A stretch of 64,000 bases of DNA from Desulfuromonadales bacterium (GTDB lineage: Bacteria; Desulfobacterota; Desulfuromonadia; Geobacterales; Pseudopelobacteraceae). Of the stretch, positions 23,071-64,000 are shown one piece after another (positions within the stretch are counted from its first letter, which is position 1; each line of letters opens with the position of its first letter). Position numbers and translations under genes: made by a program. Location of the stretch: contig JAENWA010000068.1 of NCBI GenBank assembly GCA_016650295.1, positions 62,001 to 126,000 on the forward strand. The letters run 5' to 3'. The notes beneath the pieces are model-generated. The model had not been told where the DNA came from, searched no databases, and was given only the letters and a program-made list of their open reading frames with translations.

Positions 23071-25953
23071 TTATTCATAGTACTTTAACTTTCTCATATT
23101 AAATGCTGGCATCGCACCTTCCAAAACATCAACAATTTTTTTATTTACTTCTTTGTCCTCTATGCTTCCTGAAACTGTTGAAAACGTGTAGTTGCTTTCT
23201 TTGTCAAGACCGACATAAATAACCTGTTCTGCATCAGATACAACAGCTAGATTTGGGTTGTGAGTGACCATTATAATCTGACGTTTTTTCTTTGCAGCTC
23301 TAATGAAAGGAACTAGTATAGTGGCCACGCTGTGATTATCAAGATTGTCTTCAGGTTGATCAATGACAAGTGGGATATCGTTCTTATCGAGAAGAAGATA
23401 AAAAACAAGAAGTAAGGCTCCACGCTCACCAGGGGAAAGCTGTTCAAACTCTTTATCACCCTGTTTAAGCTGATAATTATTATCTAAAAACCCTAAAATA
23501 AACAGATAATTATACAGAGCTTGTATGTCTTTAACTTGATCAGAAACGGCTCGTGGTGTATTTTTTTGACCACTCCTTTTATCAAAACGCAAAGCATTTA
23601 CTATGTTGTTGAGTAACGAAATAACATCCTCTTTTTCATCAAAATCAATTTCGGTCAACAACCCAATTAGCTGCGCCTCGCCGCCTTCTTTTGAATGGAA
23701 TGTTCCCATTTTATTTTGCAGAATTAAATCTAAAAACCTAGTGTTGAAGTCCCCCTTCTTAACGAGAGATGCGTCAACTTCAATTTTGTAGTCCTTTAGT
23801 GTGTCTTGGTTCTCTTCAATAATTGCATTGAGTCGATTACGAGCATCTTTGTAAACAGCTATAATTTCATGTTTTTTGTCGAAAATACTTCTGACAACAA
23901 CCCTACGATCTTCGTATTTTGATTCCAGCTCATCGTTTAGACTTGCAGACAAATATTCAAGTTCTACCTTGTAGTAATCAATCGTATCAAAAACTCCGAC
24001 TGAGCCAATAATAGCATCTTTTAATTTATGCCAGCTATCCTTGTTAGTTAAATATTGCTGATACTGCTGTTGATCGATATCAAGCTTAGACCTCTCAACT
24101 TTTAGATGCGCTTCTATACCTGCCAACTGCTCTGGTAAAGGTGTCGATTCGTCGCTTGCAGCCACTTCCCCAAGCAACTCTTTTGCTTTTTGTAAGCTAT
24201 CTTCCTTTTCAAAAATCAGCGCGTCGAGCTCGGTGAAATCTGTTTGAATGGTAACCAATTTTTTAACATCTACGTTAAACCCAGTGAGCTCAAGCTCCTT
24301 CTCAGAAATAAATTTACCGATTTCAATCTCTTTTTGCCTGACATCAGACTTTATGGTTTTAAGTAATTGGAGAGTTTCCAACGCGTTTTTTTTCTGATCC
24401 TCGGCGGCCTGAACTGCAGTTTGTAACTTTTGGATATTCTCCTTAAGTTCGTTTATTTTGTTATTAACCGTCTCATTTTGGATCTTCTTTTCAGGGTCTT
24501 CATTCGGGTCAGAAACAGGAGGGGGTTCAACAAGAGCTGCAAGTTCCTCCTGTTTTTTCTTGAGCTTGTTTTCAATCTCGGAACGATATGCGGTTGTAGA
24601 CTTTCGTTCCAACTCAATAATCTTCTTGTTGATCTCACGAATTTCACCCTTGAACATTTCAAGTTCTAAATTTGCTGACGAGGTGGTTTTTTCGATCAAC
24701 TCACCGAATGATAAAGTCCCAAGCCTTTCAGAGTCAGGAATATGCGAAAAAACTACCCCTTCTATTTCATTCTGAAACTCTTCAACTGTACGAATTTCAT
24801 TAGTTAATCGTTCAAATTGCCCCTGAGGCAGATATTTGACATCAAGCAGATCAGTAATCGCCGATTGGTCCTGTAAATTAATTTTAGATACCTTGCCGCT
24901 TTCCCAGACGACGGCAGCATTAAAGTTTTCAGCCAATCTCTTTTTCTTAAATTTTTCTGGAGTCAAAAACGAAAAGTCCGACCCTGATGGGTAGTTTGAG
25001 CAAAGCGCAATTACATCTGCTATTGCGCTTTTTCCGCTGCCTTTGTTTCCAATAATCGCAACCAGTTCACTATTGAGGGGGACAGAAACATTTTTAAACC
25101 AGACCCCGTACCTTTCGTCATACCCTTCTGCTTGAGTGATTTCCAACTCTTTGATGTATTTAGTTCGGTTTTTTGAGAGCCGGTCAAGCAAGGATGGTTT
25201 TTCTCCGATGAAAACCCGTCCCTCAGGTTCTATAGCAACTTGTTTCAACCCGTCAAATAAAGGATCCGCCTTCAACCAACAGTTCACCTTTAATTTATAA
25301 TCATTTATGTTGTGGTTGTCGGAGCCTATAACCATTGGAAGCCTTTTCTTGATAAATGGGAACACAACCTCGATATAACCCTTTTGATCTTCTGGCTTGC
25401 CAAGTTCATAGAAATCGACACTTCTGGCGATATCTTCCTTTTGAGCCATAGTATGCTGTAAAGAGTTCGTTATAGTCTCTACACTGCCATGCTTTTGCCC
25501 TGAATGAACAGTTACTATACCTCCCAATTCATGAACTAATGAAGTTGTGTCTATAAGATCACAATAGACTCCATTCGGTTTTTTCGATTCACTTAATATT
25601 CTACTAATTGCTGTTTTATTTTGTAATTGCCCCCATATATAATCCAATTTGCAATCTTCTGAAAATATTCCGATAAAGTGAACTGGCTCTGAGCCACGAG
25701 CATCAGATAAGAATTCAATACCAGGAAGGACGGTAACCCCCTTTGCCACTCCAATTTGTTGCAGCTCTCTGATTCGTTGAACATCAATTATATGATGATC
25801 AGTAATTGCAACTACAGAAATTCCATTCTTAACTATGGCATCGATAATGTCTTCATTTGTGACACTTTTATTTTCGTAGTCATACGAAGCTGGGGTGTGA
25901 AGATGGAGGTCCCATTTTCGCCACTCTGCACCTCTAGGATATTTCAGGGCCAT
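23071..25953 (-). CDS. PHP-domain SMC-like ATPase (TrlF-like), probable defence protein
   Basis: A 960-residue fusion. Residues 1 to about 270 are a PHP metal-dependent phosphoesterase domain: WDLHLHTPASYDY, VVAITDHHIID, TVHSGQKHGS and VIGSDNHNINDYK supply the metal-binding histidines. From about residue 290 an SMC/Rad50-type ATPase follows: Walker A GNKGSGKSAIAD, a long coiled-coil centre (430-790), signature FEQLSPGERGALLLVF, Walker B IPLVIDQPEDNLDN and the H-loop MVTHNPN. The domain order matches proteins named TrlF-like in databases, which often occur in defence islands. It probably senses nucleic acid through the ATPase and cleaves a phosphoester with the PHP part. The gene is AT-rich compared with the core. 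It is adjacent to a helicase-nuclease gene running the same way. Confidence 0.9.
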   Translation of the reverse strand: MALKYPRGAEWRKWDLHLHTPASYDYENKSVTNEDIIDAIVKNGISVVAITDHHIIDVQRIRELQQIGVAKGVTVLPGIEFLSDARGSEPVHFIGIFSEDCKLDYIWGQLQNKTAISRILSESKKPNGVYCDLIDTTSLVHELGGIVTVHSGQKHGSVETITNSLQHTMAQKEDIARSVDFYELGKPEDQKGYIEVVFPFIKKRLPMVIGSDNHNINDYKLKVNCWLKADPLFDGLKQVAIEPEGRVFIGEKPSLLDRLSKNRTKYIKELEITQAEGYDERYGVWFKNVSVPLNSELVAIIGNKGSGKSAIADVIALCSNYPSGSDFSFLTPEKFKKKRLAENFNAAVVWESGKVSKINLQDQSAITDLLDVKYLPQGQFERLTNEIRTVEEFQNEIEGVVFSHIPDSERLGTLSFGELIEKTTSSANLELEMFKGEIREINKKIIELERKSTTAYRSEIENKLKKKQEELAALVEPPPVSDPNEDPEKKIQNETVNNKINELKENIQKLQTAVQAAEDQKKNALETLQLLKTIKSDVRQKEIEIGKFISEKELELTGFNVDVKKLVTIQTDFTELDALIFEKEDSLQKAKELLGEVAASDESTPLPEQLAGIEAHLKVERSKLDIDQQQYQQYLTNKDSWHKLKDAIIGSVGVFDTIDYYKVELEYLSASLNDELESKYEDRRVVVRSIFDKKHEIIAVYKDARNRLNAIIEENQDTLKDYKIEVDASLVKKGDFNTRFLDLILQNKMGTFHSKEGGEAQLIGLLTEIDFDEKEDVISLLNNIVNALRFDKRSGQKNTPRAVSDQVKDIQALYNYLFILGFLDNNYQLKQGDKEFEQLSPGERGALLLVFYLLLDKNDIPLVIDQPEDNLDNHSVATILVPFIRAAKKKRQIIMVTHNPNLAVVSDAEQVIYVGLDKESNYTFSTVSGSIEDKEVNKKIVDVLEGAMPAFNMRKLKYYE

Positions 25954-26044: not shown

Positions 26045-29000
26045 CTACCCACCCCGCCGATTATCCTCAAACATCTCCACTGGCATCGAATGCCTGAGCC
26101 GCCAGACCACCTTGATCGGCCGTTCGCTCTCGTAACTAACCATATCCACCGGCCCCATATAGGTAAACGGAACCGTGACATTGTTCCGTTTCTTCTGGTC
26201 GCGGGCGAAGACCAGGATCGTGTAACCCCGCTCTTGATGGTGAATCAGGTTCTGCCCGTCAGTGTGATGCTGCGCGGTATTCGCTTGGGACTCCCAATGC
26301 ATGAGATCCCTGCTGATGGGATAATCGGCATACATGGTGCTCGGTGAGAACTCCTTTTCGGTCTTCTGAAAGGTGACCAACAGCACATAGGTCTTTACAT
26401 CAGCAAAATGAAACGAACCCACACCGGTCTGCCCGGCTGTCTCCAAATTTGCCCGGCCAAAGACCGCCTGAATCTCCTTGCCACCGTAATGGGCGTGCAG
26501 CTCCAGCGGGCAGGCATAGGGGAGCTGCGGAATCAGGCCACTGACCTCGGTGGTGTCCTCTGCCCAGGCCAGGATTTCATCCAGATCGGCCAGGATCGAC
26601 GGGTTGCGCGCCAGACGCCGGAAGGCATCGTCCAGAGAGGTAATGCCGAGACTGCTCCCTTTGTCCCCCCAGATTCGATAGTACACAGACATGGCGGAGT
26701 CCCCTGCTATCGTCAGCGCCTCATCAACGGCCCCCTGGGCAACCTTGGCGAGGACATCACGTAACAGGGCAATTTCCCGCGGGCCGTTGATAAAGGCGGC
26801 GCGCACGAGGGTCTTGTTTAGCCTCGCCAGGTCCGGATCATTGGGAATTGGGCCTAACAGCGCCTTGGCTTTCCACTCTGACCATGTTTCCTTGATCAGC
26901 AACACTTCAGGATCGTAATCGTGGTAACGGATAAAGTTGCCAAAGGTTAGCTTCTGCCCGCTTTCGCTTGTGAAGGTCTGCAACCGGTCCGGAACCTGCA
27001 CATTCAACTTGCCGAGATTCTCGCGGATGTTCTCTAGCACGTACTGCCGTGAGAGGCGGTCGAGCTGAATGGAACAACCGGCCGGAAGGTGGGGGAAATC
27101 CTGCTCTACTTCCTTGTCGATGGAAAAGCGAAGCCGGGGGAGGAGCGCTTTCAGTTTGGTATCAACCCGGTAACGGCGGTGGGTTTGGCCGACAAAGTCC
27201 AGTACGGTGAGACAGTCCTTGCCCGGTGCATGACGCAGGCCGCGTCCCAACTGTTGGAGGAAGACGGTCAGGCTCTCGGTGGGACGGAGAAACAGTACTG
27301 TGTTGATCTCCGGGACGTCCACCCCTTCACTCAGTTTGTCCACGGTAAAGAGGAAGGTGAGCCGGCCGTTTTTCAAATTAGACAGCAACTCACTGCAACG
27401 ATCACCGTCTATACCTGAAACAAAGGCAGCGGCAGGGATTCCCAAGTCGGTGAAGGTCTCTGCCATGAATTCGGCATGCTTGATGGTGACACAGAAACCG
27501 ATCCCCTTGATGACGGTAAGGTCGGGTTCATAGCGATGGAGCGCCTCAATAATGGCGGCAACGCGCCGCTTGGCGCTGACGTTATCCAGCACATAGACGT
27601 TTTCCAGGGCCGAGGCATCATACTTGCCGTTACGCCAGAACTTGTCCTCATTGAGGGCGATCGGGTCGGCAACACCAAAGTAATGGAAGGGACAGAGGAG
27701 CTTTTCCTCTAAGGCTTCCGGAAGACGAATCTCGGCGGCAAAGCGGTTGCCAAAGTCGGCGGCCACATTGTCGCCATCCATCCGCTCCGGCGTAGCGGTC
27801 AGGCCAAGGAGAATCTGGGGGGCAAAGTGATCAAAGAGCGGCCGATAGCTGGCGGCGGTGCCGTGGTGGGTCTCGTCAACCACGATGTAGTCGTAGAAGT
27901 CGCTACCCACCTGCTCCCAGAGACGGCGACTGGCCAGCATGCCAACTGAACAAAAGAGGTGTTCCAGGCGTGTGGCCTGAAACTGGCCCACCAGCAATTC
28001 ACCGAAGTTCTGATCGCGCAGGATATTGGCAAAGGTGGCCTGGGCCTGCTGGAGAATCTCCTGGCGATGGGCCACAAACAACAGTCGGCATTGGCGCTGC
28101 TTCTGATCAAAGAACCGTTTGAAATCAAAGGCGGCGACTACTGTTTTGCCGGTGCCGGTGGCGGCTATCACCAGGTTACGCCATCGGTCATGGCTGTTCC
28201 GCTCCCGCTCCAGCGCCTCAAGGATACGCTCTTGAAACGGATGGGGGCGAAGATCAAAAAAGACTGCCGGACCGTTTGATCTGGGATTGCGGGCACGATC
28301 AATGGCGGTGCGGAACAGGGTCGGATTCTCGGGATCGAATCGTTCAAACTCGCGGCTGTTCCAGTAGGTCTCAAACTCGACGGAAAACTTTTCGAGGATA
28401 TGCCCCATATCCTGGGCCGTGAGCTTGAGATTCCATTCCAGGCCGCTGGTAATGGCCGCATGTGACATGTTGGCTGAACCGATATAGGCGGTGGAAAAGC
28501 CGGAGTTACGCCGAAAGTGGTACGCTTTGGCATGGAGCCGCGTTCTTTCGACGTCGTAGGAGACCTTTACTTCAATGTTCGGCATGCGGGCCAACCACTC
28601 TACCGCCGGGGCATCGGAGGCCCCCATATAGGAGGTTGTTATCAGGCGCACCGGTATTCGACGGTCACGCAGATCCTCAAAGGCCGGCATCAGCAGGCGC
28701 AGGCCAGACCATTTGATGAAGGAAACAAGGATGTCCACGCCATCGGCAGAGCGCATCTCTTCGTGTAATTCATGGACCAGTTGTGGCTCTCGGGGGGAAC
28801 CGGTGAAGAGGCTGCTTTCTACCAGCGAAGTATGGGGGCGCGGGATACCTGGTGTGCCGTAGTGCGGCGGGGTGATTTCAAGGAGGATCGGTTTGGGTTG
28901 CGGAATCAAGCGGTGTTTTTCCAGATGCCCCCTACCCGGCTCATCGGCTACCTGACCGAGAATCCGGTTGCAGAGCGCCAGCCGTTTTTCCGGGTCTGAT

Positions 29001-29095
29001 TCTTCGCGGAGAGCCTGTTCCAGCACTTTTGCCACAAAGGCAGCATACAACCCCGGTTGCTCTTCCGGGTCGATCTTTCCGAACACGGTCCGCAA
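26045..29095 (-). CDS. PLD-nuclease/SF2 helicase/DUF3427 protein (5' end cut by a stop codon)
   Basis: A large protein of 1016 residues in the remaining frame. A phospholipase-D-type domain (RLHAKAYHFRRNSG and GSANMSHAA, about 205-235) is followed by an SF2 helicase core: Walker A AATGTGKTVVAAFD near 313, DEAH-type VVDETHHGTA near 407, GLTATPERMDG, and motif VI QQLGRGLRHAPGK. The C-terminal 400 residues are the DUF3427 region. Such proteins are suspected restriction- or defence-type nucleases. Natural translation should start 27 codons earlier, but TAG at 29105-29107 interrupts that frame (see the next entry). The remaining frame opens with TTG at 29095 without a good ribosome site, so expression is doubtful, though all catalytic motifs are intact. 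Confidence 0.85.
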   Translation of the reverse strand: MRTVFGKIDPEEQPGLYAAFVAKVLEQALREESDPEKRLALCNRILGQVADEPGRGHLEKHRLIPQPKPILLEITPPHYGTPGIPRPHTSLVESSLFTGSPREPQLVHELHEEMRSADGVDILVSFIKWSGLRLLMPAFEDLRDRRIPVRLITTSYMGASDAPAVEWLARMPNIEVKVSYDVERTRLHAKAYHFRRNSGFSTAYIGSANMSHAAITSGLEWNLKLTAQDMGHILEKFSVEFETYWNSREFERFDPENPTLFRTAIDRARNPRSNGPAVFFDLRPHPFQERILEALERERNSHDRWRNLVIAATGTGKTVVAAFDFKRFFDQKQRQCRLLFVAHRQEILQQAQATFANILRDQNFGELLVGQFQATRLEHLFCSVGMLASRRLWEQVGSDFYDYIVVDETHHGTAASYRPLFDHFAPQILLGLTATPERMDGDNVAADFGNRFAAEIRLPEALEEKLLCPFHYFGVADPIALNEDKFWRNGKYDASALENVYVLDNVSAKRRVAAIIEALHRYEPDLTVIKGIGFCVTIKHAEFMAETFTDLGIPAAAFVSGIDGDRCSELLSNLKNGRLTFLFTVDKLSEGVDVPEINTVLFLRPTESLTVFLQQLGRGLRHAPGKDCLTVLDFVGQTHRRYRVDTKLKALLPRLRFSIDKEVEQDFPHLPAGCSIQLDRLSRQYVLENIRENLGKLNVQVPDRLQTFTSESGQKLTFGNFIRYHDYDPEVLLIKETWSEWKAKALLGPIPNDPDLARLNKTLVRAAFINGPREIALLRDVLAKVAQGAVDEALTIAGDSAMSVYYRIWGDKGSSLGITSLDDAFRRLARNPSILADLDEILAWAEDTTEVSGLIPQLPYACPLELHAHYGGKEIQAVFGRANLETAGQTGVGSFHFADVKTYVLLVTFQKTEKEFSPSTMYADYPISRDLMHWESQANTAQHHTDGQNLIHHQERGYTILVFARDQKKRNNVTVPFTYMGPVDMVSYESERPIKVVWRLRHSMPVEMFEDNRRGG

Positions 29096-38194: not shown

Positions 38195-38977
38195 TTATAT
38201 GGCCGGTTCTGACTTCCATACCCTCCCCAGCATCTCCCGGAAAAACTCGTCCAATACATCTTCATCAACATCCACCATCTCCATACCTTCAACAAAATCC
38301 GAACAATGGTCTATCTGTTGCTCAAGAAAGGCATTGATTACCTCAATTTTGGGTTCCATATCCAGCTCGTCACCTGCGATTTTTCGAAGCAGAAGCCTGT
38401 CAATCTCTACTGAAATTGATGGCGAAAGTCCCGCGTCCTTGTACAATTCGTCGAATTCAGTCGGCGGCATGCAGTTGTGTTTCTCTATCCACAGACAAGC
38501 CAGAACGGGCCGCAGGACATAGAAGTATTTCTTGATCCGTACCGTCTCCCCCTTCAGATATTCCCGGAAGTTTCCCCGCGCCATGTGCAGGTAGTGAAGC
38601 ATGCAGCGTTTGGGTGAGTAGTAATCGGCCATCAGTTCCCTCAACCGGTCCGCAAGACCGTAACGATCAAGATAGACGTGAGGAGAACCAATCCATTCCA
38701 GAAGAGGAGGATTTGACTTGCGAAACAGGCCAAGGGCCTTCGGCAAGTCCCAGCCGCTTATGTCCAGATCGCCGGAAATGGGGCATTCGATCACATCCCG
38801 CTGTTTGCGGATGGAGAGATACCATTCAAGCGGATGCAGGTAGATGAAACGCACGTCATAGTCGCTGTCCTTTGATGCGAATCCCCAGGCCCGGCTGCCG
38901 GACTCAACGGCGAAAAGGATACGGACGTTCTGCTCTTGTTCAATTTGTTCGAGGTTGGCAAGAATAGTGTTCTGCAT
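38195..38977 (-). CDS. RlaP-type predicted nucleotidyltransferase
   Basis: 260 residues. The nucleotidyltransferase motif reads LFAVESGSRAWGFASKDSDY, with DVRFIYLHP after it: the GSRAWG and DSDYDVRF elements of the RlaP (PF10127) family. AAGGAATG lies before the ATG. RlaP proteins are often found with RNA-repair-type enzymes and in viral or mobile contexts; their substrate is not settled. The gene ends the leftward group behind three metallophosphoesterase genes, and a terminator follows it. Confidence 0.9.
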   Translation of the reverse strand: MQNTILANLEQIEQEQNVRILFAVESGSRAWGFASKDSDYDVRFIYLHPLEWYLSIRKQRDVIECPISGDLDISGWDLPKALGLFRKSNPPLLEWIGSPHVYLDRYGLADRLRELMADYYSPKRCMLHYLHMARGNFREYLKGETVRIKKYFYVLRPVLACLWIEKHNCMPPTEFDELYKDAGLSPSISVEIDRLLLRKIAGDELDMEPKIEVINAFLEQQIDHCSDFVEGMEMVDVDEDVLDEFFREMLGRVWKSEPAI

Positions 38978-39007
38978 TGCGTCATTCCTTCTGTTTGCTG
39001 CGTCAAT

Positions 39008-39361
39008 TCACGCCATATCAGTTTTTAATAATTTTGCCACTTCATCGTATTGTCTTACATACCTTGCAAAAATTTTATTCCGTTCCGCCTGACTGATAAT
39101 ACCGCAGAACGGTGATGAACTTCTTAAGTGCGTAGCCCGTTGTGATCGAGACAGAAGAAGCTTGATAATAGCCTCGTGCTCCCATGTCTGCAAAATTTCC
39201 TTCCAGACCATGAAGGGCACCGGCAACGAACCATCTTTTTCAGTCCATCGCTCAATATTTTGTAACGGCTTCTCCCACAAATCAGGGCAGCTACATAGCT
39301 TCCGGACTATTGCCCGATGCAGGGCCAATGACCGTTTATCAGAACGTTCTTGTAGGTTCAT
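39008..39361 (-). CDS. Helical protein of unknown function next to the nucleotidyltransferase
   Basis: 117 residues, MNLQERSDKRSLALHRAIVR, all-helical. The middle IERWTEKDGSLPVPFMVWKE and the end RATHLRSSSPFCGIISQAER, followed by NKIFARYVRQYDE, recall small helical proteins encoded beside toxin-like genes (the L..SSPF.G.....ER..I pattern). It starts 31 bases before the nucleotidyltransferase, so the two are likely a pair, perhaps antitoxin and toxin. No strong ribosome site is seen. Confidence 0.65.
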   Translation of the reverse strand: MNLQERSDKRSLALHRAIVRKLCSCPDLWEKPLQNIERWTEKDGSLPVPFMVWKEILQTWEHEAIIKLLLSRSQRATHLRSSSPFCGIISQAERNKIFARYVRQYDEVAKLLKTDMA

Positions 39362-39375
39362 ATTTAACTCGATTA

Positions 39376-39420
39376 AAAGTTCCGTATAAAAGTTTGTTTT
39401 TAAGATCTATACGGAACTTT
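39376..39420. terminator. 13-base perfect inverted repeat spanning the end of the phosphoesterase operon
   Basis: AAAGTTCCGTATA (39376-39388) and TATACGGAACTTT (39408-39420). The second arm lies inside the last codons of the metallophosphoesterase gene and the first just after its stop. It may terminate or attenuate transcription before the 39008 gene, though the U-tract is short. Confidence 0.5.
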
Positions 39421-40365
39421 AAGACACAAATCCCTTAACTCCAAGTCATCACGAATTATATCATCATCGCTGATGATCTTAACCCATACCGATTCATCAT
39501 AGTCTTCCCCTAACTTCCAATGCTGATAATCCCGATCATCAAACCCACAATCCAGAAGGCTTTGCTGAAGCCTAGAACCCTGCAAGGTATGACCATTAAC
39601 GAAAATAAACCGAGCAAACGGCAAAATTTCATTTACGGGTAATTCACGGAAGGTCATAGGCACACCCCCCATTTCTTTTGGCTCCAATGGCAATTGCACC
39701 AGCTTATTCGCAGCTGTATCATACAACCAGCAATTATTTTTGCAATTCGTCGTGTCCAGGGCAACATAATTTTCTGTTACCACCGGCTCTTTTGTCTCGG
39801 TATGCCCAAAAATTTGCTTAACATTGGCGAGTCGGTCTCCCTCCCGCTTGAAGTCGAACCAGAAAATTCCGCCACTATTATATCGGCCACTGCCACCCCT
39901 TGACTTGCCGATAGCAAAAATCCCGTCCAGCGTCTCGCATGGACTAGCCATCCATTCAGCAAGCTGATCATTCAGCATATCGGCCAACACATTCACGTTA
40001 GTTATATCATTCGCCAACCATTTAGCCAGGCCGGCATGTGTGCATAACCAGTCATCTACGGAATATGCAGCTTTGAACCTGTCTATGTGGTTTTCAATCA
40101 ATTGTTGATACGGCTCTTCAAGCCCAAACTGGTATCCCGTGCTGAAAAACGGAGGGACCCGGTGATAATTAAAGTCATGATTGCCCCAGAGCAAAATAGA
40201 ATCGGAATCAAGGAGCAATTGCAATGACTCAATCTGCCGGACTTGAGGTTCATGGAACGAGTCGAGGTAATCGCCAAGGGCTACATGCACCTCTTCCGGC
40301 TTGTAGGACAAAAACGCCTTCACCTTCTCTACGTTACCGTGTATGTCACCTACTATTATCGCCAA
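39400..40365 (-). CDS. Metallophosphoesterase, third of three in the operon
   Basis: 321 residues of the calcineurin-like fold. I start at TTG at 40365 (AIIVGDIHGNVEKVKAFLSY), which follows GGAGAGG within the end of the upstream gene; the frame upstream of it is spurious. Metal motifs: GDIHG, HVALGDYLDSFHEP, LLWGNHDFNYH, CTHAG and FGHTE. It is clearly paralogous to the first phosphoesterase (41119-41814), sharing KAFL.YKPE..HVALGDYLDSF.EP and the closing YVALDTTNCKNNCWLYD block, but has a longer C-terminal extension (NEILPFARFIFVNGHTLQGS). Gap to the upstream stop: four bases. Confidence 0.9.
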   Translation of the reverse strand: MAIIVGDIHGNVEKVKAFLSYKPEEVHVALGDYLDSFHEPQVRQIESLQLLLDSDSILLWGNHDFNYHRVPPFFSTGYQFGLEEPYQQLIENHIDRFKAAYSVDDWLCTHAGLAKWLANDITNVNVLADMLNDQLAEWMASPCETLDGIFAIGKSRGGSGRYNSGGIFWFDFKREGDRLANVKQIFGHTETKEPVVTENYVALDTTNCKNNCWLYDTAANKLVQLPLEPKEMGGVPMTFRELPVNEILPFARFIFVNGHTLQGSRLQQSLLDCGFDDRDYQHWKLGEDYDESVWVKIISDDDIIRDDLELRDLCLKVPYRS

Positions 40366-40369
40366 TGTG

Positions 40370-41122
40370 TTACCTCTCCAATGAAACAACCTCATTGTAA
40401 TGGCAATTGAATTTATCAATCTGCTTGTTCAGATGAAAATGCCCGAAATGCCAAGACTTGAAATTAAGTTTTTCGTATAACTTTTGAAGCATGGTTTCTG
40501 TTGGATCTGGAATCCGGCTATTCGCTAAAAAATGGTGTCTCTGACTTTCCGGGCATGTATGAGTTATAACATAATCAACCATCCACCCTACCCTATCCAG
40601 ATTTTGACAGGCATTATCAAAATCATCTTCTGACGGGATTTCTTCCGGCCACCAATCTTTCCCCTCTGTTCGTGCCGGAATTCGATCATAACCCCGGCCC
40701 CATGCAAGGGACGGTACTTTACCGCCAAAACGATCATGGCTGTTTGCACCGCCGAAGGCAAAAAAAGTATGCCCCTCGATGGTGAACACTTCACCCCGTT
40801 TTAGATAATAAACGTTCTCCCTGATCTTGTAAGCCTTGCCGCCGAATATCTCAACAATCGGGAACTCACCACCAAACAGCCGAGCAAAGTTTTCATGATT
40901 GCCATCGACCGTCAACCACAATACTCTTTGCCGCAGAGTCATTTCCAAATATGCATTTTCAGAGCGACTATTTTTATTATTGCTATGATAATCATGGAAC
41001 CAAACACCGCCAAAGTCACCGCAGCAGATGACAATATCACCCCGCTTGGCCGGTTTGAATTGAGCTGAAGAAACATGATATGAAGATTCCCCGCCGTGGA
41101 GATCCCCCGTTACATAGATCAT
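40370..41122 (-). CDS. Metallophosphoesterase, second of three in the operon
   Basis: 250 residues of a different calcineurin-like subgroup from its two neighbours. Metal motifs: MIYVTGDLHGGE, VICCGDFGGVWFHD, LTVDGNHENFARLFGG, VITHTCPESQRHH and HFGHFHLN. The ATG at 41122 overlaps the previous stop as ATGA and has GGAGGATGG in front; an ATG six bases earlier is too close to that site. The GDFGGVW pattern is seen in phage- and island-borne phosphoesterases. Likely a nucleotide- or RNA-directed phosphatase; not provable here. Confidence 0.9.
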   Translation of the reverse strand: MIYVTGDLHGGESSYHVSSAQFKPAKRGDIVICCGDFGGVWFHDYHSNNKNSRSENAYLEMTLRQRVLWLTVDGNHENFARLFGGEFPIVEIFGGKAYKIRENVYYLKRGEVFTIEGHTFFAFGGANSHDRFGGKVPSLAWGRGYDRIPARTEGKDWWPEEIPSEDDFDNACQNLDRVGWMVDYVITHTCPESQRHHFLANSRIPDPTETMLQKLYEKLNFKSWHFGHFHLNKQIDKFNCHYNEVVSLER

Positions 41123-41814
41123 GACCATCCTCCTCCGCTAAATCTCACTCGCCCAATCTTCGGCGGCAGCGGTAACTGCACTAGTTCACGATGTTGCGTA
41201 TCGTACAGCCAGCAGCTATTGGTAAAATTTGTTGTATCCAAGGCAATATAATTTTCCCGTACTTCCGGCTGGCGGATTTCCACATGCCCGAATATCTGCT
41301 TGATGTTTGGAGCAACAATTGATCCTTCTACCAAGAAGTTGAACCAGAAGATCGACTGATACCGGTACTGGCTATGCTTACTGATGAATCGCTTCACAAG
41401 ATATCTCTCAAATTGGCTTTGAAGCATCTTAGCAAGCTTATCAACATCATTGACATGTGCCGTTATGCCTTGATGTACTCCGGCATGGGTCAACAGCCAC
41501 CCATCCACGGCGTATGCCGCTTTGAACCGTTTTATATTTTCCTCAAGGATCTCTTGAATGATCTGAACATATTCAACATTGTACCCGGCAAACTGGAACA
41601 GGGGCTCTTTGAGGTAATGAACCTCATGATTGCCGAGTAACAGCACTGCATTGGATTCCATGAGTAACTGAAGGCATTCAAGCTGCCTCTCAAATGGTTC
41701 TATAAAGCTGTCCAGGTAGTCACCCAAAGCCACATGCAGGGTTTCCGGTTTATAATCCAGAAAGGCCCGCGCCTTTTCAATATCACCATGTATGTCAGCA
41801 ACCACGATTGCCAT
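41119..41814 (-). CDS. Metallophosphoesterase, first of three in the operon
   Basis: 231 residues from the ATG at 41814, which follows the upstream stop at once (TGAAATG). Motifs: MAIVVADIHGDIEKARAFLD, HVALGDYLDSFIEP, LLLGNHEVHYL, LLTHAGVHQG and IFGHVEIRQPEV. It shares extended similarity with the third phosphoesterase but lacks its tail, ending in PPKIGRVRFSGGGWS. The long frame upstream (to 41895) overlaps the 41816 gene and is not used. The tandem paralogues suggest duplication around the middle gene. Confidence 0.9.
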   Translation of the reverse strand: MAIVVADIHGDIEKARAFLDYKPETLHVALGDYLDSFIEPFERQLECLQLLMESNAVLLLGNHEVHYLKEPLFQFAGYNVEYVQIIQEILEENIKRFKAAYAVDGWLLTHAGVHQGITAHVNDVDKLAKMLQSQFERYLVKRFISKHSQYRYQSIFWFNFLVEGSIVAPNIKQIFGHVEIRQPEVRENYIALDTTNFTNSCWLYDTQHRELVQLPLPPKIGRVRFSGGGWS

Positions 41815-41815
41815 T

Positions 41816-42325
41816 TCAATCCACTTCCAGTTCAATTTGTGTGAAATCAAAATCTGACCATTTGTCTGTGAATGCATCGATCTCTGAAGTGACAATATCT
41901 AAAGCTTCGGGATCGAATGGTATGGAGCCATGCCCTTTGCGGTAAACAATTATGCAGGTATTCCGGAAGCGCACTCCAGTAAGGATGCGGCTGGCATTCT
42001 GTAGAGTGTTTTCCCGGCAGTGTTCCGGTTGAAAATGGACGTCGAAGCGTTCCAACCATTCCAAGACCTTGTAATGGGTGAATTGATCTTTATCGAATTG
42101 ATATTCAGCCAAACAGATGAGTTCTCCATCCAACTCAATGACGGTGGCAGTAATATCACCAACAGCTATCTGATGGCTCAGAACATCGTCATCAAAGGTA
42201 TATCCGAAGCCTATCAGATTACGTTCAATATGACCGAGATGCTTTTTGAGGCAGTCGTAATATTTGAGGCAGAGGTGTCTGGTACGGTGCTTGGAGAAAT
42301 TAATGGCGGTGGGTGTTTTTGGCAT
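41816..42325 (-). CDS. Unknown protein heading the phosphoesterase operon
   Basis: 169 residues, MPKTPTAINFSKHRTRHLCL, followed by KYYDCLKKHLGHIERNLIGF. Mixed alpha/beta with a run of beta strands (ITATVIELDGELICLAEYQF), acidic C-terminus. No membrane helix or known motif. It is directly followed by the first phosphoesterase, so it may be the substrate-recognition or regulatory partner of the three enzymes. I do not recognise the family. Confidence 0.7.
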   Translation of the reverse strand: MPKTPTAINFSKHRTRHLCLKYYDCLKKHLGHIERNLIGFGYTFDDDVLSHQIAVGDITATVIELDGELICLAEYQFDKDQFTHYKVLEWLERFDVHFQPEHCRENTLQNASRILTGVRFRNTCIIVYRKGHGSIPFDPEALDIVTSEIDAFTDKWSDFDFTQIELEVD

Positions 42326-47304: not shown

Positions 47305-49977
47305 ATGTTTCAACCCCTCTCCAAAGAGGCATTAGCTGCTTTATGTAGTGACGATGCCGGTTTCCAGGAGTATCTGGCCACACTCCCCGAAAACGAGAGG
47401 AATCTTGTCGGCCGCGTTTTTGAATCCCCCGAATTACTTAATACTCTCATCGCCTCACTCCCACCTGATCAACAGCTTGCCACTCGCTCCTTACTTGACA
47501 CCTTTCAAGACGTTCCGGACAAAGCATTAGCTTTGTACAATCAGTGCCGCTTCCTGGAGGCGCGTGACCTGTTGGAGCGAGCAATCTCAATGTATGAACT
47601 TCCGGGCGGCCTGCCAGTTGACGCCATAATCATGGCTGCCGGATTTGCTGCACAAAGAGCAAAGGCACTCTTTTATGTCATGCTCGGAGATGTGGAGATG
47701 ACACTGGGGAACAGCTTGAAGGCCGGGGAACACCACCGTCAAGCCCTTGAACTATCCAAACAGTGTGGAGACCGTGATGCTGAGGCCAAGGCCCTGCATG
47801 GACTCGGATGCTATTACTGGGAACTTGGTGATTACGAACAGGCGCTTGAGTATTCCCGTCACGCTCTTGATCTGATTGAGGATACTCCAGACCGATGGTC
47901 AACCACTGGCAAGGCGTTGAACTTGTTGAGCCTCATTCATGCAGAGCTTTCACAATGGGATGAAGCTTTGCAATATGGCGATAAAGCCATTGAACTGGCT
48001 GAAAATGAAGAAGGTCAACAATCTCTGGCGATCGTCCTCAATAACCGGACGGTGCAACTGACAGACTTGGGACTTCTGGACGACGTTAAACCAATCATGG
48101 AACGTGCCTTGGCACTTGTCATCGAAAAAGGGTCGTTGCGCCAAGAGGCGATGATCAGACGGAATATGGGCATGTACCTTCTCAACGCTGCATCAGACGA
48201 TAAAGATGTGGATGCTGCAATTATATGTTTTCAGAAATCCCTCGAAATCAGCCTGAGAATCAAGGCTGTCAGCCCAGAAGCATTGACATGCAGCGGTTTG
48301 GGGTATGCACTTGTCATGAAAGAAGAAATTACCGATGCAGAAGAACATTTTCGGCGAGCGGTAGAGTTATATCGCGGTATAGGAGCAATTGCAGATCAGG
48401 CGGCTTCACTCGTTGATCTTGGAAATCTGCTTCGATTCTGCCGTAATGCACCTGAAAATGCTCTGAACTGTTATTCAGAAGCGATCAATCTGACAGAACA
48501 GGTGCGATCAAAACTAAAGCGTGAGACCCATCGGATTGGTTTGTCGGAGGCAAGGACCGAGCCGTATCAGCAGGCCATTACAACCCTACTTGAGTTGGGA
48601 AGAGTTGACGAAGCCTTCCATTATCTGGAGCGGGCACGTTCGAAGGCACTGTTGGAACTTTTGGCCGGCCAATTCAGTGTCGGTGGTAGTGATGAGGCAT
48701 TCAGGAAAACGGCTGAGTTTGCTAAACGGATAGACGAGTTACGTCACGCTCTCGATGAGATACAAAAGGCTGATGAAACCGGTGCATTTGATGAAAATGA
48801 AGAGACCACCCGTCGTGCAACCATGCGGGGGGAGATTCAGCAGGGACTGGAACAGGAAGAACTACAATTCGTCAAACTTTGTGAGGAATTGCAGCGCGTT
48901 TCGCCGGAACGTCATGGCATGGTTACTGTCCAGGCGACTGACAGTTCGGCGGTTCAAGCAATTCTCTCTGCGGGTACTGCATTGGTCGAGTTGTATCAGA
49001 CTGATGAGCAGCTCCTGCTCTTTGTAATACGTCGGGATCATCCAGCGTTGGTCGTAGAGATTGAACTGACCGCTGATGATGCTGCGGAAATGGTCTTTCC
49101 CTACATCCTGGCGCTGCGTGATCCGAATACGCTCGACATCCAATCCCACGATTATTTGCGTTCTGTGCGCCAGCCGGCCTCACGGCTTCATGAAGCTATC
49201 TTTGGTCCTCTTGAGGAAATCCTTGACGGAGTGCAGCGACTGGTCATTGTACCGCATCTCTTCTGGCACTATCTCCCGTTTCATGCTTTGTACGATAGCA
49301 AAAGCAAGCAGTTCCTTCTCGACCGCTTTGAAATCAGTTATGCCCCTTCTGCGTCGGCACTGGTGGTATGCAAAGGTAAGCAACGACACAGGCGCGATAG
49401 CGCCATGATACTGTGCCGTAATGATGGCGACCTGCCCCATGTGGAAGCGGAAGGGATCGCCATAAGCAAGGTATTCGATCATTCCTCAATATTCCACGGC
49501 AGCGAAGCCGACTTGGGAAAAGCAGATTGTCAGTCCGCCCTGGATGTGATCCATTGTGCCTGCCATGGCTATTTTGATCCGGAGCAGCCTTTTCTTTCAG
49601 GCATTGCCATCCCACCGGACAAGGATATGGAGCGGCCCACGATGTTGATGGACTTGATGCGACTCAGGCTAGAGACTTCGCTGGTCACCCTCAGCGCTTG
49701 TGATACGGGTTTGAGCCGAATCTCCAACGCCGATGAGCTGGTAGGGCTCAGCAGAAGCTTCTTCGGTGCCGGGGCGGCTGCCCTCTTACTTAGCCTTTGG
49801 AAGGTCGCGGATAGCTCGACTGCGTATTTGATGGAGAACTTCTACTGGCACTACGTGGCTAATCGCAAGACCAAGGGGAGATCACTGCAACTGGCCATGC
49901 AAGCAGTGCGGGCCAAGCCGGAATATGCCCATCCGTATTATTGGGCGCCATTTGTGGTGATGGGAGAATGGGAGTGA
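47305..49977 (+). CDS. TPR-CHAT protease (caspase-like peptidase)
   Basis: 890 residues. Repeats from about residue 95 to 430 are tetratricopeptide-like (AKALHGLGCYYWELGDYEQA, SLIHAELSQWDEALQYGDKA). A coiled linker follows, then a CHAT domain from about 600: IVPHLFWHYLPFHALYDSKS, the catalytic His near residue 754 in IHCACHGYFDPEQPF, and the catalytic Cys near residue 799 in LVTLSACDTGLSRISNADEL. The final segment (HPYYWAPFVVMGEW) is the standard CHAT ending. CHAT peptidases cleave partner proteins in conflict systems (for example in type III-E CRISPR and gasdermin systems). The ATG has GGAGGG upstream. Neighbours suggest its activity is controlled by the kinase-FHA module. Confidence 0.93.
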   Translation: MFQPLSKEALAALCSDDAGFQEYLATLPENERNLVGRVFESPELLNTLIASLPPDQQLATRSLLDTFQDVPDKALALYNQCRFLEARDLLERAISMYELPGGLPVDAIIMAAGFAAQRAKALFYVMLGDVEMTLGNSLKAGEHHRQALELSKQCGDRDAEAKALHGLGCYYWELGDYEQALEYSRHALDLIEDTPDRWSTTGKALNLLSLIHAELSQWDEALQYGDKAIELAENEEGQQSLAIVLNNRTVQLTDLGLLDDVKPIMERALALVIEKGSLRQEAMIRRNMGMYLLNAASDDKDVDAAIICFQKSLEISLRIKAVSPEALTCSGLGYALVMKEEITDAEEHFRRAVELYRGIGAIADQAASLVDLGNLLRFCRNAPENALNCYSEAINLTEQVRSKLKRETHRIGLSEARTEPYQQAITTLLELGRVDEAFHYLERARSKALLELLAGQFSVGGSDEAFRKTAEFAKRIDELRHALDEIQKADETGAFDENEETTRRATMRGEIQQGLEQEELQFVKLCEELQRVSPERHGMVTVQATDSSAVQAILSAGTALVELYQTDEQLLLFVIRRDHPALVVEIELTADDAAEMVFPYILALRDPNTLDIQSHDYLRSVRQPASRLHEAIFGPLEEILDGVQRLVIVPHLFWHYLPFHALYDSKSKQFLLDRFEISYAPSASALVVCKGKQRHRRDSAMILCRNDGDLPHVEAEGIAISKVFDHSSIFHGSEADLGKADCQSALDVIHCACHGYFDPEQPFLSGIAIPPDKDMERPTMLMDLMRLRLETSLVTLSACDTGLSRISNADELVGLSRSFFGAGAAALLLSLWKVADSSTAYLMENFYWHYVANRKTKGRSLQLAMQAVRAKPEYAHPYYWAPFVVMGEWE

Positions 49978-61644: not shown

Positions 61645-62775
61645 ATGCAAATCCATACCCATCTGTTTCTAGTGAATGACGATCTTGTTCCCAATATCAC
61701 ACCGGTTCTCGATCCCAGTTTCTGCCCCAAGAAGGTCTTTCTGATGAGTTCTTCTGCAACACATATTTCAGCAGGCAGACTCAAGAAAATATTGAATGAC
61801 GCTGGAGTCGTTGTGCATGACTGGTTTATCAACGATTCATGGGATATCGAACATGTGCGTGAGAAGGTCCTGGAATTCGTGGGTGATCATGGACATGGGG
61901 ATATTGCGCTGAACGTAACCGGAGGAACCAAGCCGATGAGCCTGGCCGCATACGAGATCTTTCACTATGCTGATAAGCCCGTTTATTACGTCAACCCGGA
62001 AAATGATAATGTCGTCTGGATGCACCCGCGTGACAGAAAATCCTTTGATCTTGCTGACAGGATCAAGCTCCCTCTCTTTTTCAATGCTCATGACTTGCGG
62101 ATTGTATCCAGCAAGAATGGCGCGATTCCACAGAAACTGCGTGATTTGGCATCCCTGCTCGTCAGCGATGTCAGTCGTTACGTGCATCATCTTGCAATAC
62201 TGAATTATTTCGCATCCGAGAGTGAAGGCACTCTTCTGTCACCGGCACAAAAGAACGAACACCTGAAGGATCAAGAACTTCAGAGTTTGATAAAGCTCCT
62301 TGCCGATCTGTACCTGTTGACCGTGGATTCGAAATTCAGGTTGCGGTTTATGAGTGAAGATGCCCGTTTCTTTGTGAATGGAGGGTGGCTGGAAGAGCAT
62401 GTTTACAGTGTGCTTGGTGGCTTGTCGTCAATCCAGGATTTGGCTAGAAATGTCGATTTTGTGTGGGATGAAAAAGAGAGTCCCGTCAAGAACGAGATCG
62501 ATGTGGCCTTTCTGGCAGATAACAAGCTTTATCTTATCGAGTGCAAGACGAAGAATTTCGAATGCAAACAATCAGATGCGGATGAGGTGCTCTATAAATT
62601 GGATACATTGAGAGATTACCTGGGCGGCAAAGAAGCCCGTGCCATGTTTGTTAGCTATAACCGGATTCCTGCTATACACAAAAAACGTTCGGAAGAGTTG
62701 GGGATAAAGGTTTGTGAGGGGAATGCGATAAGAAGTATCGAGGCAGTTTTGAGGGAATGGGTTTCAAAGAGATGA
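61645..62775 (+). CDS. Orphan Card1/Can2-like CARF nuclease (DUF1887)
   Basis: 376 residues, close to the size of characterised Card1. The N-terminal CARF domain contains KVFLMSSSATHISAGRLKKI and the ligand loop ALNVTGGTKPMSLAAYEIFH (GGTK at 93-96). A winged-helix middle follows, then a PD-(D/E)xK nuclease: NEIDVAFLADNKLYLIECKT with Glu284, Asp286, Glu299 and Lys301. In type III CRISPR systems this family cuts DNA and RNA when bound to cyclic tetra-adenylate. No cas10, csm/cmr genes or repeat array are visible here, so it may respond to another signal. GAGGATC precedes the ATG. Confidence 0.92.
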   Translation: MQIHTHLFLVNDDLVPNITPVLDPSFCPKKVFLMSSSATHISAGRLKKILNDAGVVVHDWFINDSWDIEHVREKVLEFVGDHGHGDIALNVTGGTKPMSLAAYEIFHYADKPVYYVNPENDNVVWMHPRDRKSFDLADRIKLPLFFNAHDLRIVSSKNGAIPQKLRDLASLLVSDVSRYVHHLAILNYFASESEGTLLSPAQKNEHLKDQELQSLIKLLADLYLLTVDSKFRLRFMSEDARFFVNGGWLEEHVYSVLGGLSSIQDLARNVDFVWDEKESPVKNEIDVAFLADNKLYLIECKTKNFECKQSDADEVLYKLDTLRDYLGGKEARAMFVSYNRIPAIHKKRSEELGIKVCEGNAIRSIEAVLREWVSKR

Positions 62776-62845: not shown

Positions 62846-63413
62846 AATCAGTAGTGTTCCAACGTTTAGCTGAATAAAAACAGTTGGTTATTATTTTCGT
62901 CTGTTTCGCTTCTGTTAACAGAAGCTGTAAGTGCCTGCAACAAGGGCATTCGTTCGAAAATGGTCACGCTCAAGACCTGTAGAATTATGTAAAGACTGGC
63001 TTCGATTTTGAGCCGTTTCTTCATGAGGTCAACGAGCACGTAAACTGACACGGCAATCCAGATTTGAGCTTTGACTGCATTCTCCGATGTGCCGTAGAAG
63101 GTCTTGATCCGCAGGTTCTGCTTGACCCATCGGAAGAACAGCTCTACCTGCCAGCGGCATCGATACAGTTCGGCAATGGTCATGGCCGGCAGGGTAAAGT
63201 TGTTGGTCAGGAACACAAGGGTTCTGTCGGTTGCTTTGTCGTGATACTTCACCCGGCGTAGCTTGTTCGGATAGTCCTTGGATTGATAGAAGCTGGTGAG
63301 TAGTACGGACTGATCGCAGAGCAGACCGGTTGCCTTGTCCACCGGAACTTTCTCTCAGAATTATCGGGCTAATACGGCTCATCGACTACTCAACGTTGGG
63401 ACACTACTGATTG
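62846..63413 (-). mobile_element. Internally deleted IS4-family element with both ends
   Basis: Terminal inverted repeats: AATCAGTAGTGTTCCAACGTT at 62846-62866 and AACGTTGGGACACTACTGATT at 63393-63413 (20 of 21 bases complementary). The element is 568 bases, less than half of a normal IS4-type element, and contains only the C-terminal part of the transposase. I see no convincing target duplication beside the ends. It could still be moved in trans by an intact relative. Confidence 0.85.
62866..63342 (-). pseudogene. C-terminal part of an IS4-family transposase
   Basis: About 158 residues: DKATGLLCDQSVLLTSFYQS, KLRRVKYHDKATDRTLVFLT, NNFTLPAMTIAELYRCRWQV and ELFFRWVKQNLRIKTFYGTS (the Y-x2-R...ELFF.WK-like signature with the catalytic Glu). 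The stop lies inside the left terminal repeat. The N-terminal 200 or so residues with the first catalytic Asp are deleted. Confidence 0.88.
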
Positions 63414-63458
63414 GGAATAATGGATAAGTACTCAATTTTGGCAAAATTGGAGGCAGAA

Positions 63459-64000
63459 ATGGCATTTAATTTAACACCAAATGACATTGATAACGTCATT
63501 ATGGATTCTCTTGAAAGTTTAAATGAAATTATTTTTAATGGTGATGAGATAAAGCGTCTTACTGACGATGAGAATACGACAGATAATATTACTATGGCAT
63601 GTGAGATTGCCGAATGTTTTCTGATCCCTGCTTTAGAAAATATAGACTTAGCAGATAATAACGCAGCATTAAGAAAGAGGGTTTTGACTTTATTACCATA
63701 TAATAAAGCAAAAAAAATGATAGTAGCAATAAGTGATATATTTAAAAATAATAGTAATAAATTTAACGCCGGATGCTATCTTACTAAAACTGATGTTGAC
63801 AGCAAAAAAGATTATGAGATAGTTGATGCGGCAGCATTTATGTTCACCACATGCCTCCATTTTAGGCAAATATATAGCGAAAACTTAAAAGAAAAACACG
63901 AGGAGCAAACAGCTAATTTAACGGCAAATCTTTTAGATGCTGCAATAGATTTTCTAATGAAAAATGAAGTTAAAAGTGATGAAGATGAAAATGAGTATTT
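63459..64000 (+). CDS. AT-rich gene of unknown function (3' end beyond the window)
   Basis: At least 180 residues from the ATG at 63459 (MAFNLTPNDIDNVIMDSLES), preceded by GGAGG; the frame is also open from 63420. The frame has no stop up to the window end. The visible part is helical, acidic and Asn/Lys-rich (NEIIFNGDEIKRLTDDENTT; DIFKNNSNKFNAGCYLTKTD). Its base composition is far more AT-rich than the core genes, which suggests recent transfer. I do not recognise the family. Confidence 0.7.
   Translation, partial: MAFNLTPNDIDNVIMDSLESLNEIIFNGDEIKRLTDDENTTDNITMACEIAECFLIPALENIDLADNNAALRKRVLTLLPYNKAKKMIVAISDIFKNNSNKFNAGCYLTKTDVDSKKDYEIVDAAAFMFTTCLHFRQIYSENLKEKHEEQTANLTANLLDAAIDFLMKNEVKSDEDENEY

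What the first reader, a model, noticed from the sequence alone, without database searches (positions are those of the whole stretch)
61645..62775. Card1/Can2-like CARF nuclease without a CRISPR system, next to the CHAT operon
The protein has an intact GGTK ligand loop and an E-x-D...E-x-K nuclease site, yet no cas10, Cas effector or repeat array is in 64 kb of sequence. CHAT proteases and CARF nucleases both occur as type III CRISPR accessory effectors. Their proximity here suggests a nuclease arm of the same signalling system, activated by a different or remotely made cyclic nucleotide.
Basis: partly seen in the sequence, partly recalled or inferred. Interest (0 to 1): 0.75.

Follow-up and report, generated by a model that had tools for sequence, protein, structure and literature searches.

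The report
Orphan Can2-type CARF nuclease
This gene encodes an intact relative of a nuclease that normally serves type III CRISPR immunity, but its genome has no type III CRISPR system and its signal-binding pocket has begun to change, so it is probably a CRISPR effector that has been cut loose and may answer to another trigger.

Summary
The ORF at 61645-62775 is a real, intact Can2/Card1 (DUF1887) protein: CARF sensor plus PD-(D/E)xK nuclease. The AlphaFold model (mean pLDDT 95.5) matches VC1899 (Z 41.8) and cA4-bound Can2 (Z 35.5). The 99%-complete genome shows no Cas10, RAMP, CD-NTase (SMODS) or mCpol. It does carry a type I-E CRISPR locus with a long array on another contig, so 'without a CRISPR system' is wrong.

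This is exceptional for the family: 23 of 25 other genomes in the family and phylum samples that hold a homologue have type III genes, often beside it. Its sister is a Pelobacter protein (51% identity) whose genome also lacks RAMPs. The pair nests among mostly type III-linked Can2s. GGTK and Tyr115 are kept, but Ser11, invariant in 77 other rows (nearly all type III-linked), is Asn, and Gln13 is Asp. VC1899, the known orphan not activated by cA4, is also changed there.

A truncated second copy 8 kb downstream shows dN/dS 0.07, so the nuclease domain was long under selection. CHAT linkage is not supported: it could not be found elsewhere.

Verdict: orphaned Can2 with a partly remodelled pocket in a low-GC, probably acquired, island. 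Trigger unknown.

The parts
61645..62775 (+). Can2/Card1-type CARF nuclease gene, 376 aa
   Evidence: ORF; Pfam, PADLOC and PDB sequence matches; AlphaFold model and fold matches
61660..62067 (+). CARF domain, residues 6-141
   Evidence: PF23400 CARF_Card1, 7.3e-13
61675..61683 (+). Altered side of the ligand pocket: Asn11-Asp12-Asp13 where relatives have Ser-x-Gln
   Evidence: Alignment of 99 proteins: Ser11 100% and Gln13 97% conserved in 77 other rows
61921..61932 (+). GGTK ligand loop, residues 93-96, kept
   Evidence: Alignments
62356..62766 (+). PD-(D/E)xK nuclease domain, residues 238-374
   Evidence: PF09002 Card1_endonuc, 1.2e-31
62494..62547 (+). Catalytic motif E284-x-D286 ... E299-x-K301, intact
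   Evidence: Invariant or nearly invariant columns
62846..63412 (.). Internally deleted insertion sequence between the nuclease gene and the next gene cluster, with a transposase fragment at 62866-63342 (-)
   Evidence: 24-nt terminal inverted repeats, 92% complementary; DDE_Tnp_1 match
63411..64000 (+). Start of the downstream six-gene cluster (576-aa protein, ParA-like ATPase, 241 aa, CxxCxxCC protein, 669 aa, methyltransferase), which continues beyond the window and ends in a truncated second Can2 copy at contig C68:132307-132696
   Evidence: L015 reading frames and domains; second copy

Best explanation
It is a Can2-type nuclease that descends from type III CRISPR effectors but now works without one, in a low-GC, probably acquired, defence-rich island. 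By homology it is a dimer whose CARF domains form a pocket. Ligand binding would close the two nuclease domains over RNA or DNA and cut it, causing dormancy or death of an infected cell. Shown here: intact predicted fold, intact catalytic motif, past purifying selection on the nuclease domain, no type III genes found in the genome, descent among mostly type III-linked proteins, and a pocket changed on the Ser11/Gln13 side. Inferred: that it is expressed and active, that the pocket change shifted or loosened cA4 recognition, and that the trigger is another anionic ligand, a signal supplied by an invader, or cOA from a transient type III system.
For: Family and fold. No Cas10, RAMP, SMODS or mCpol in the genome, whereas 23 of 25 other homologue-bearing genomes have RAMPs. 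Sister Pelobacter protein (support 100/99) in a genome also without RAMPs, the pair nested in a mostly type III-linked group. Ser11 to Asn and Gln13 to Asp, K96 and Y115 kept. Altered pockets lie in RAMP-less genomes in 13 of 14 scored cases. dN/dS 0.07 between the two copies of the nuclease domain. GC falls to 36-43% around the gene, and the three other genomes of the genus lack it.
Against: The pocket keeps Lys96, Tyr115 and Ser36, and Asn11 could still bond a phosphate, so cA4 binding is not excluded. The Fisher test ignores relatedness; the phylogeny-aware pairs test is not significant. The sister lies next to a Cas_NE0113 CARF protein, a usual type III neighbour. The genome is a draft of 123 contigs. 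dN/dS covers only the nuclease domain and does not prove present function.
Confidence: 0.58

Rival explanations
1. An ordinary cA4-activated Can2. Its Cas10 lies in an assembly gap, on a lost or strain-variable plasmid, or in MGE-borne type III systems that enter the cell, and the nuclease waits for their cOA.
For: GGTK, Tyr115 and Ser36 kept; the family is overwhelmingly type III-linked; a Can2 homologue with a type III-B locus occurs on an Aeromonas plasmid.
Against: The genome is 99.1% complete with no RAMP or Cas10. The sister's genome also lacks RAMPs. Ser11, 100% conserved in 77 mostly type III-linked rows, is changed in both.
Confidence: 0.2
2. A relic on its way to decay: the gene lost its partner and survives as an inactive remnant, like the truncated copy 8 kb downstream.
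For: No partner genes; a truncated paralogue and a deleted IS nearby; VC1899, another orphan, has only weak residual RNase activity (PMC7969007).
Against: Full-length frame, catalytic motif and predicted fold intact; nuclease-domain dN/dS 0.07 at dS about 1.
Confidence: 0.15
3. A nuclease arm of the CHAT/kinase/FHA block upstream, switched by that block.
For: Same strand, mostly overlapping genes from the kinase to the last glycosyltransferase, then a 102-nt gap in which the scans report no promoter or terminator on that strand. The Pelobacter sister lies next to a kinase-containing protein.
Against: No protein of the block, apart from generic Clp-type AAA+ matches, has a convincing relative near 80 Can2 relatives. 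The DUF4407 marker is absent from all other family and phylum genomes searched. Radical SAM and glycosyltransferase genes intervene. The Pelobacter kinase protein gave no BLAST match to the window's proteins.
Confidence: 0.07

Closest known systems
Can2 of Sulfobacillus thermosulfidooxidans (PDB 7bdv) and the wider Can2/DUF1887 family
   Same: Same domain order, fold (Z 35.5, 2.3 A over 334 residues), catalytic motif, Lys96 and Tyr115.
   Different: [quoted passage not shown] here no type III genes were found, and Ser19 and the residue two further on are replaced by Asn and Asp.
VC1899 of Vibrio cholerae (PDB 1xmx)
   Same: Closest solved fold (Z 41.8, 2.0 A over 367 residues); also an orphan without type III CRISPR (PMC7969007); also altered at the Ser19 position.
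   Different: VC1899 has lost nearly the whole cA4 site (12 of 15 conserved CARF positions against 3 of 15 here) and belongs to a separate branch.
Card1 (PDB 6wxw, 6xl1)
   Same: Same architecture; fold Z 29.0 to the cA4-activated form.
   Different: Only about 22% identical over the structural alignment; the window protein is closer to VC1899 and Can2.
Daci_4198 of Delftia acidovorans (VC1899 family outside CRISPR)
   Same: Published example of this family not linked to CRISPR-Cas (PMC4012209).
   Different: Embedded in a type VII-like/Ter gene cluster (PMC4012209); no such cluster was recognised among the window proteins scanned.

Membership tests
Can2/Card1 (DUF1887, PF09002 + PF23400) CARF nucleases | N-terminal CARF domain and C-terminal PD-(D/E)xK nuclease domain | tested here: met
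   Both Pfam models above cut-off; model matches Can2 and VC1899 over nearly the full length
Can2/Card1 (DUF1887, PF09002 + PF23400) CARF nucleases | Intact nuclease active site E-x-D ... E-x-K | tested here: met
   E284, D286, E299, K301
Type III CRISPR effector Can2 | Type III CRISPR locus in the genome | tested here: not met
   No RAMP; Cas10-palm hits are GGDEF proteins; draft genome, 99.1% complete
Type III CRISPR effector Can2 | Conserved cA4-contacting residues Ser19, Thr42, Lys99, Tyr118 | tested here: inconclusive
   Here Asn11, Ser36, Lys96, Tyr115 (residues named in PMC7969007): two identical, one conservative, one replaced
Type III CRISPR effector Can2 | Activation by cyclic oligoadenylate | not testable with these tools
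   Needs biochemistry
VC1899-type orphan branch | Phylogenetic membership of the VC1899 branch | tested here: not met
   Groups with Pelobacter L100 (100/99) outside the VC1899/Shewanella/Pseudoalteromonas branch
CBASS or mCpol-based signalling | CD-NTase (SMODS) or mCpol in the genome | tested here: not met
   PF18144 and PF18182: no match in the own genome; the mCpol search has weak controls (one ring, below cut-off)
Effector of the CHAT block | Conserved linkage of the nuclease with the CHAT block in other genomes | tested here: inconclusive
   Block marker found in no other genome searched, so linkage could not be compared; no convincing block relatives near 80 Can2 genes

The most novel reading that the evidence does not exclude
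The window/Pelobacter pair is an independent lineage in which a type III CRISPR effector lost its Cas10 partner and evolved a new ligand specificity (Ser-x-Gln to Asn/His-x-Asp/Glu on one side, GGTK or GGTR kept on the other). It would act as a stand-alone sensor-nuclease answering to a non-cOA cellular or phage signal, a transitional form between Can2 and fully divergent VC1899.
Probability: 0.3. Interest if true: 0.7.

Novelty: new variant of a known kind. Interest (0 to 1): 0.42.

Why it matters
Orphan CARF nucleases outside CRISPR are known (VC1899, Daci_4198), but their triggers are not established in the papers read here. A lineage with half of the cA4 site kept and half changed, still carrying an intact nuclease, is a natural intermediate on which loss or switch of ligand specificity can be tested residue by residue in purified protein. 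If it responds to something other than cOA, it would show how CRISPR signalling effectors are recruited to other defences.

Tried and rejected
Type III locus elsewhere in the genome: rejected. Cas10-palm hits as real Cas10: rejected, both are GGDEF regulators. CBASS or mCpol as ligand source: no hit. Single-sequence scans of GTDB and viral contigs found no relatives; the alignment scan found 474 relatives and kept 80. Phage-borne homologues: none in phage records or viral contigs. Linkage of the downstream six-gene cluster: its 669-aa protein occurs in no other of 395 phylum genomes and on no plasmid; the 576-aa protein on no plasmid. Linkage of the CHAT block: no second instance of its DUF4407 protein. 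Phylogeny-aware test of pocket change against RAMP loss: right direction, too few independent changes to be significant. A literature search for the CHAT/kinase/FHA/DUF4407 combination returned nothing relevant.

Full report
What is there. The ORF at 61645-62775 (+) starts with ATG behind a GAGG sequence and encodes 376 aa. It is a full Can2/Card1 protein: Card1_endonuc (1.2e-31, residues 238-374) and CARF_Card1 (7.3e-13, residues 6-141) in Pfam, a full-length PADLOC CARF4/CARF_PDDEXK match at 2.9e-110, and PDB relatives VC1899 (4e-41) and Can2 (2e-36). An AlphaFold model from 45 sequences has mean pLDDT 95.5 and pTM 0.91. VIA-align gives VC1899 Z 41.8 (2.0 A, 367 residues), cA4-bound Can2 Z 35.5 and cA4-bound Card1 Z 29.0. 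The catalytic residues E284, D286, E299 and K301 are present.

CRISPR content of the genome. The window is contig C68:62001-126000 of a 4.07 Mb, 123-contig, 99.1%-complete draft. A Cas10 palm search rings twice, but both proteins are GGDEF regulators. RAMPs, SMODS nucleotidyltransferases and mCpol give nothing; the RAMP search rings in four control genomes. The genome does have a type I-E locus on C40: Cas3, Cse1, Cse2, CT1975/Cas7, Cas5, a Cas6-type protein, a DUF1016/YhcG PDDEXK nuclease, Cas1 and a Cas2-like reading frame (the last by eye), then about 39 repeats at 61-nt spacing running to near the contig end. So there is no known maker of cyclic oligoadenylate, but the genome is not CRISPR-free.

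How unusual that is. Of 76 genomes in the family 7 hold a homologue, and of 395 sampled in the phylum 20 do, the own genome included in both counts. Outside the own genome, 23 of 25 homologue-bearing genomes have type III RAMPs, often within a few kilobases; the two exceptions, G198 and G329, have their homologue within about 1.1 kb of a contig start. An alignment-based scan of GTDB genomes found 474 relatives and kept 80; 49 of the 80 have type III genes inside the stretch fetched. The three other genomes of the same genus lack the gene. GC falls from 52-61% at the start of the window to 41-43% at the gene and 36-37% just beyond, which fits acquisition.

Kinship. In an IQ-TREE tree of 99 proteins the window protein pairs with Pelobacter sp. 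UBA6812 (L100, 51% identity, support 100/99), inside a 28-row group (96/92) of mostly type III-linked Can2, nearly all from Pseudomonadota. L100's genome also has no RAMP hit. Its neighbours are a Cas_NE0113 CARF protein upstream and a protein with SpoIIE-like, NERD and kinase segments downstream; its contig ends there. VC1899 and its Shewanella and Pseudoalteromonas relatives lie elsewhere in the tree.

The pocket. PMC7969007 names Ser19, Thr42, Lys99 and Tyr118 as the cA4-contacting residues shared by Can1 and Can2, replaced by Asp, Asp, Arg and Val in VC1899. Here they are Asn11, Ser36, Lys96 and Tyr115. Ser11 is 100% and Gln13 97% conserved in 77 other rows, nearly all type III-linked; the window has N and D, its sister H and E (plus GGTR). 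Among rows scored for RAMPs, 13 of 14 altered pockets are in genomes without RAMPs, against 6 of 81 canonical ones, which are MAG contigs, contig-edge cases or have CRISPR genes nearby (Fisher 1e-10). That p-value ignores relatedness. On the tree there are three pocket changes, and independent pairs give 1-2 concordant and none discordant, short of significance. The window deviates at 3 of 15 conserved CARF positions, VC1899 at 12.

Is it alive? A second, truncated copy (last 115 residues, 81% identical; DNA 83% over 330 nt) lies 8 kb downstream at the end of a six-gene cluster. Between the two copies dS is 1.03 and dN 0.073, ratio 0.07 over 109 codons. The nuclease domain was therefore held by selection for a long time, and the copies are not a recent duplication. 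A deleted IS with 24-nt inverted ends lies about 70 nt behind the intact gene (transposase fragment).

The CHAT idea. The CHAT gene (47305-49977) is followed by kinase, DUF4407, FHA, a 401-aa protein without a family, AAA+, two radical SAM and two glycosyltransferase genes, mostly overlapping, then 102 nt, then the nuclease. The scans report no promoter or terminator in that gap, so co-transcription is possible. No protein of the block, apart from generic AAA+ matches, has a convincing relative near any of 80 Can2 genes (one radical SAM match at E 0.0045 is to a Can2 protein itself and is taken as chance). Its DUF4407 protein appears in no other genome of the family, the phylum sample or the plasmids. 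Linkage is therefore unsupported, not disproved.

Reading. The best-supported account is an orphaned Can2 with a partly remodelled pocket and an intact nuclease, working by the CARF-dimer mechanism of Can2 but with an unknown trigger. Orphans of this family are already described (VC1899 in PMC7969007; Daci_4198 in PMC4012209). What is new is a separate lineage caught with half of the cA4 site changed. Activity, expression and ligand are inferred, not shown.

Noticed in passing
L103, L112, L113, L120 (Gammaproteobacteria MAGs): A recurrent cassette of CHAD protein, ParA-like ATPase, NUDIX protein and a Can2 with an altered pocket (GGSQ); three of the four genomes have no RAMP hit. It looks like a separate, conserved non-CRISPR use of Can2.
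   Followed up: partly
Contig C68:132307-132696 (L015:12307-12696, +), 8 kb beyond the gene: Truncated second Can2 copy that keeps only the nuclease part, with its catalytic motif, after a six-gene cluster with a ParA-like ATPase, a CxxCxxCC protein and a methyltransferase.
   Followed up: partly
G000:C92 (L018:9861-10046, -): A 62-aa frame matching the start of Cas1 with no other cas gene recognised nearby, perhaps a relic of a second CRISPR locus; Pfam did not confirm it at 0.001.
   Followed up: partly
L017:8808-9977 (contig C40): A DUF1016/YhcG PDDEXK nuclease gene sits inside the type I-E locus, between the Cas6-type gene and cas1.
   Followed up: no
window 38195-41895 (-): RlaP RNA-repair polymerase-beta family protein followed by three calcineurin-like phosphoesterases, about 20 kb from the nuclease.
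   Followed up: no
window 26045-29095 and 23071-25953 (-): Helicase with PLD nuclease and DUF3427 domains, and a PHP-SMC/AAA protein: further defence-like genes in the same region.
   Followed up: no
L015:13037-14977 (-): A 646-aa protein with no Pfam match above cut-off next to the truncated Can2 copy.
   Followed up: no
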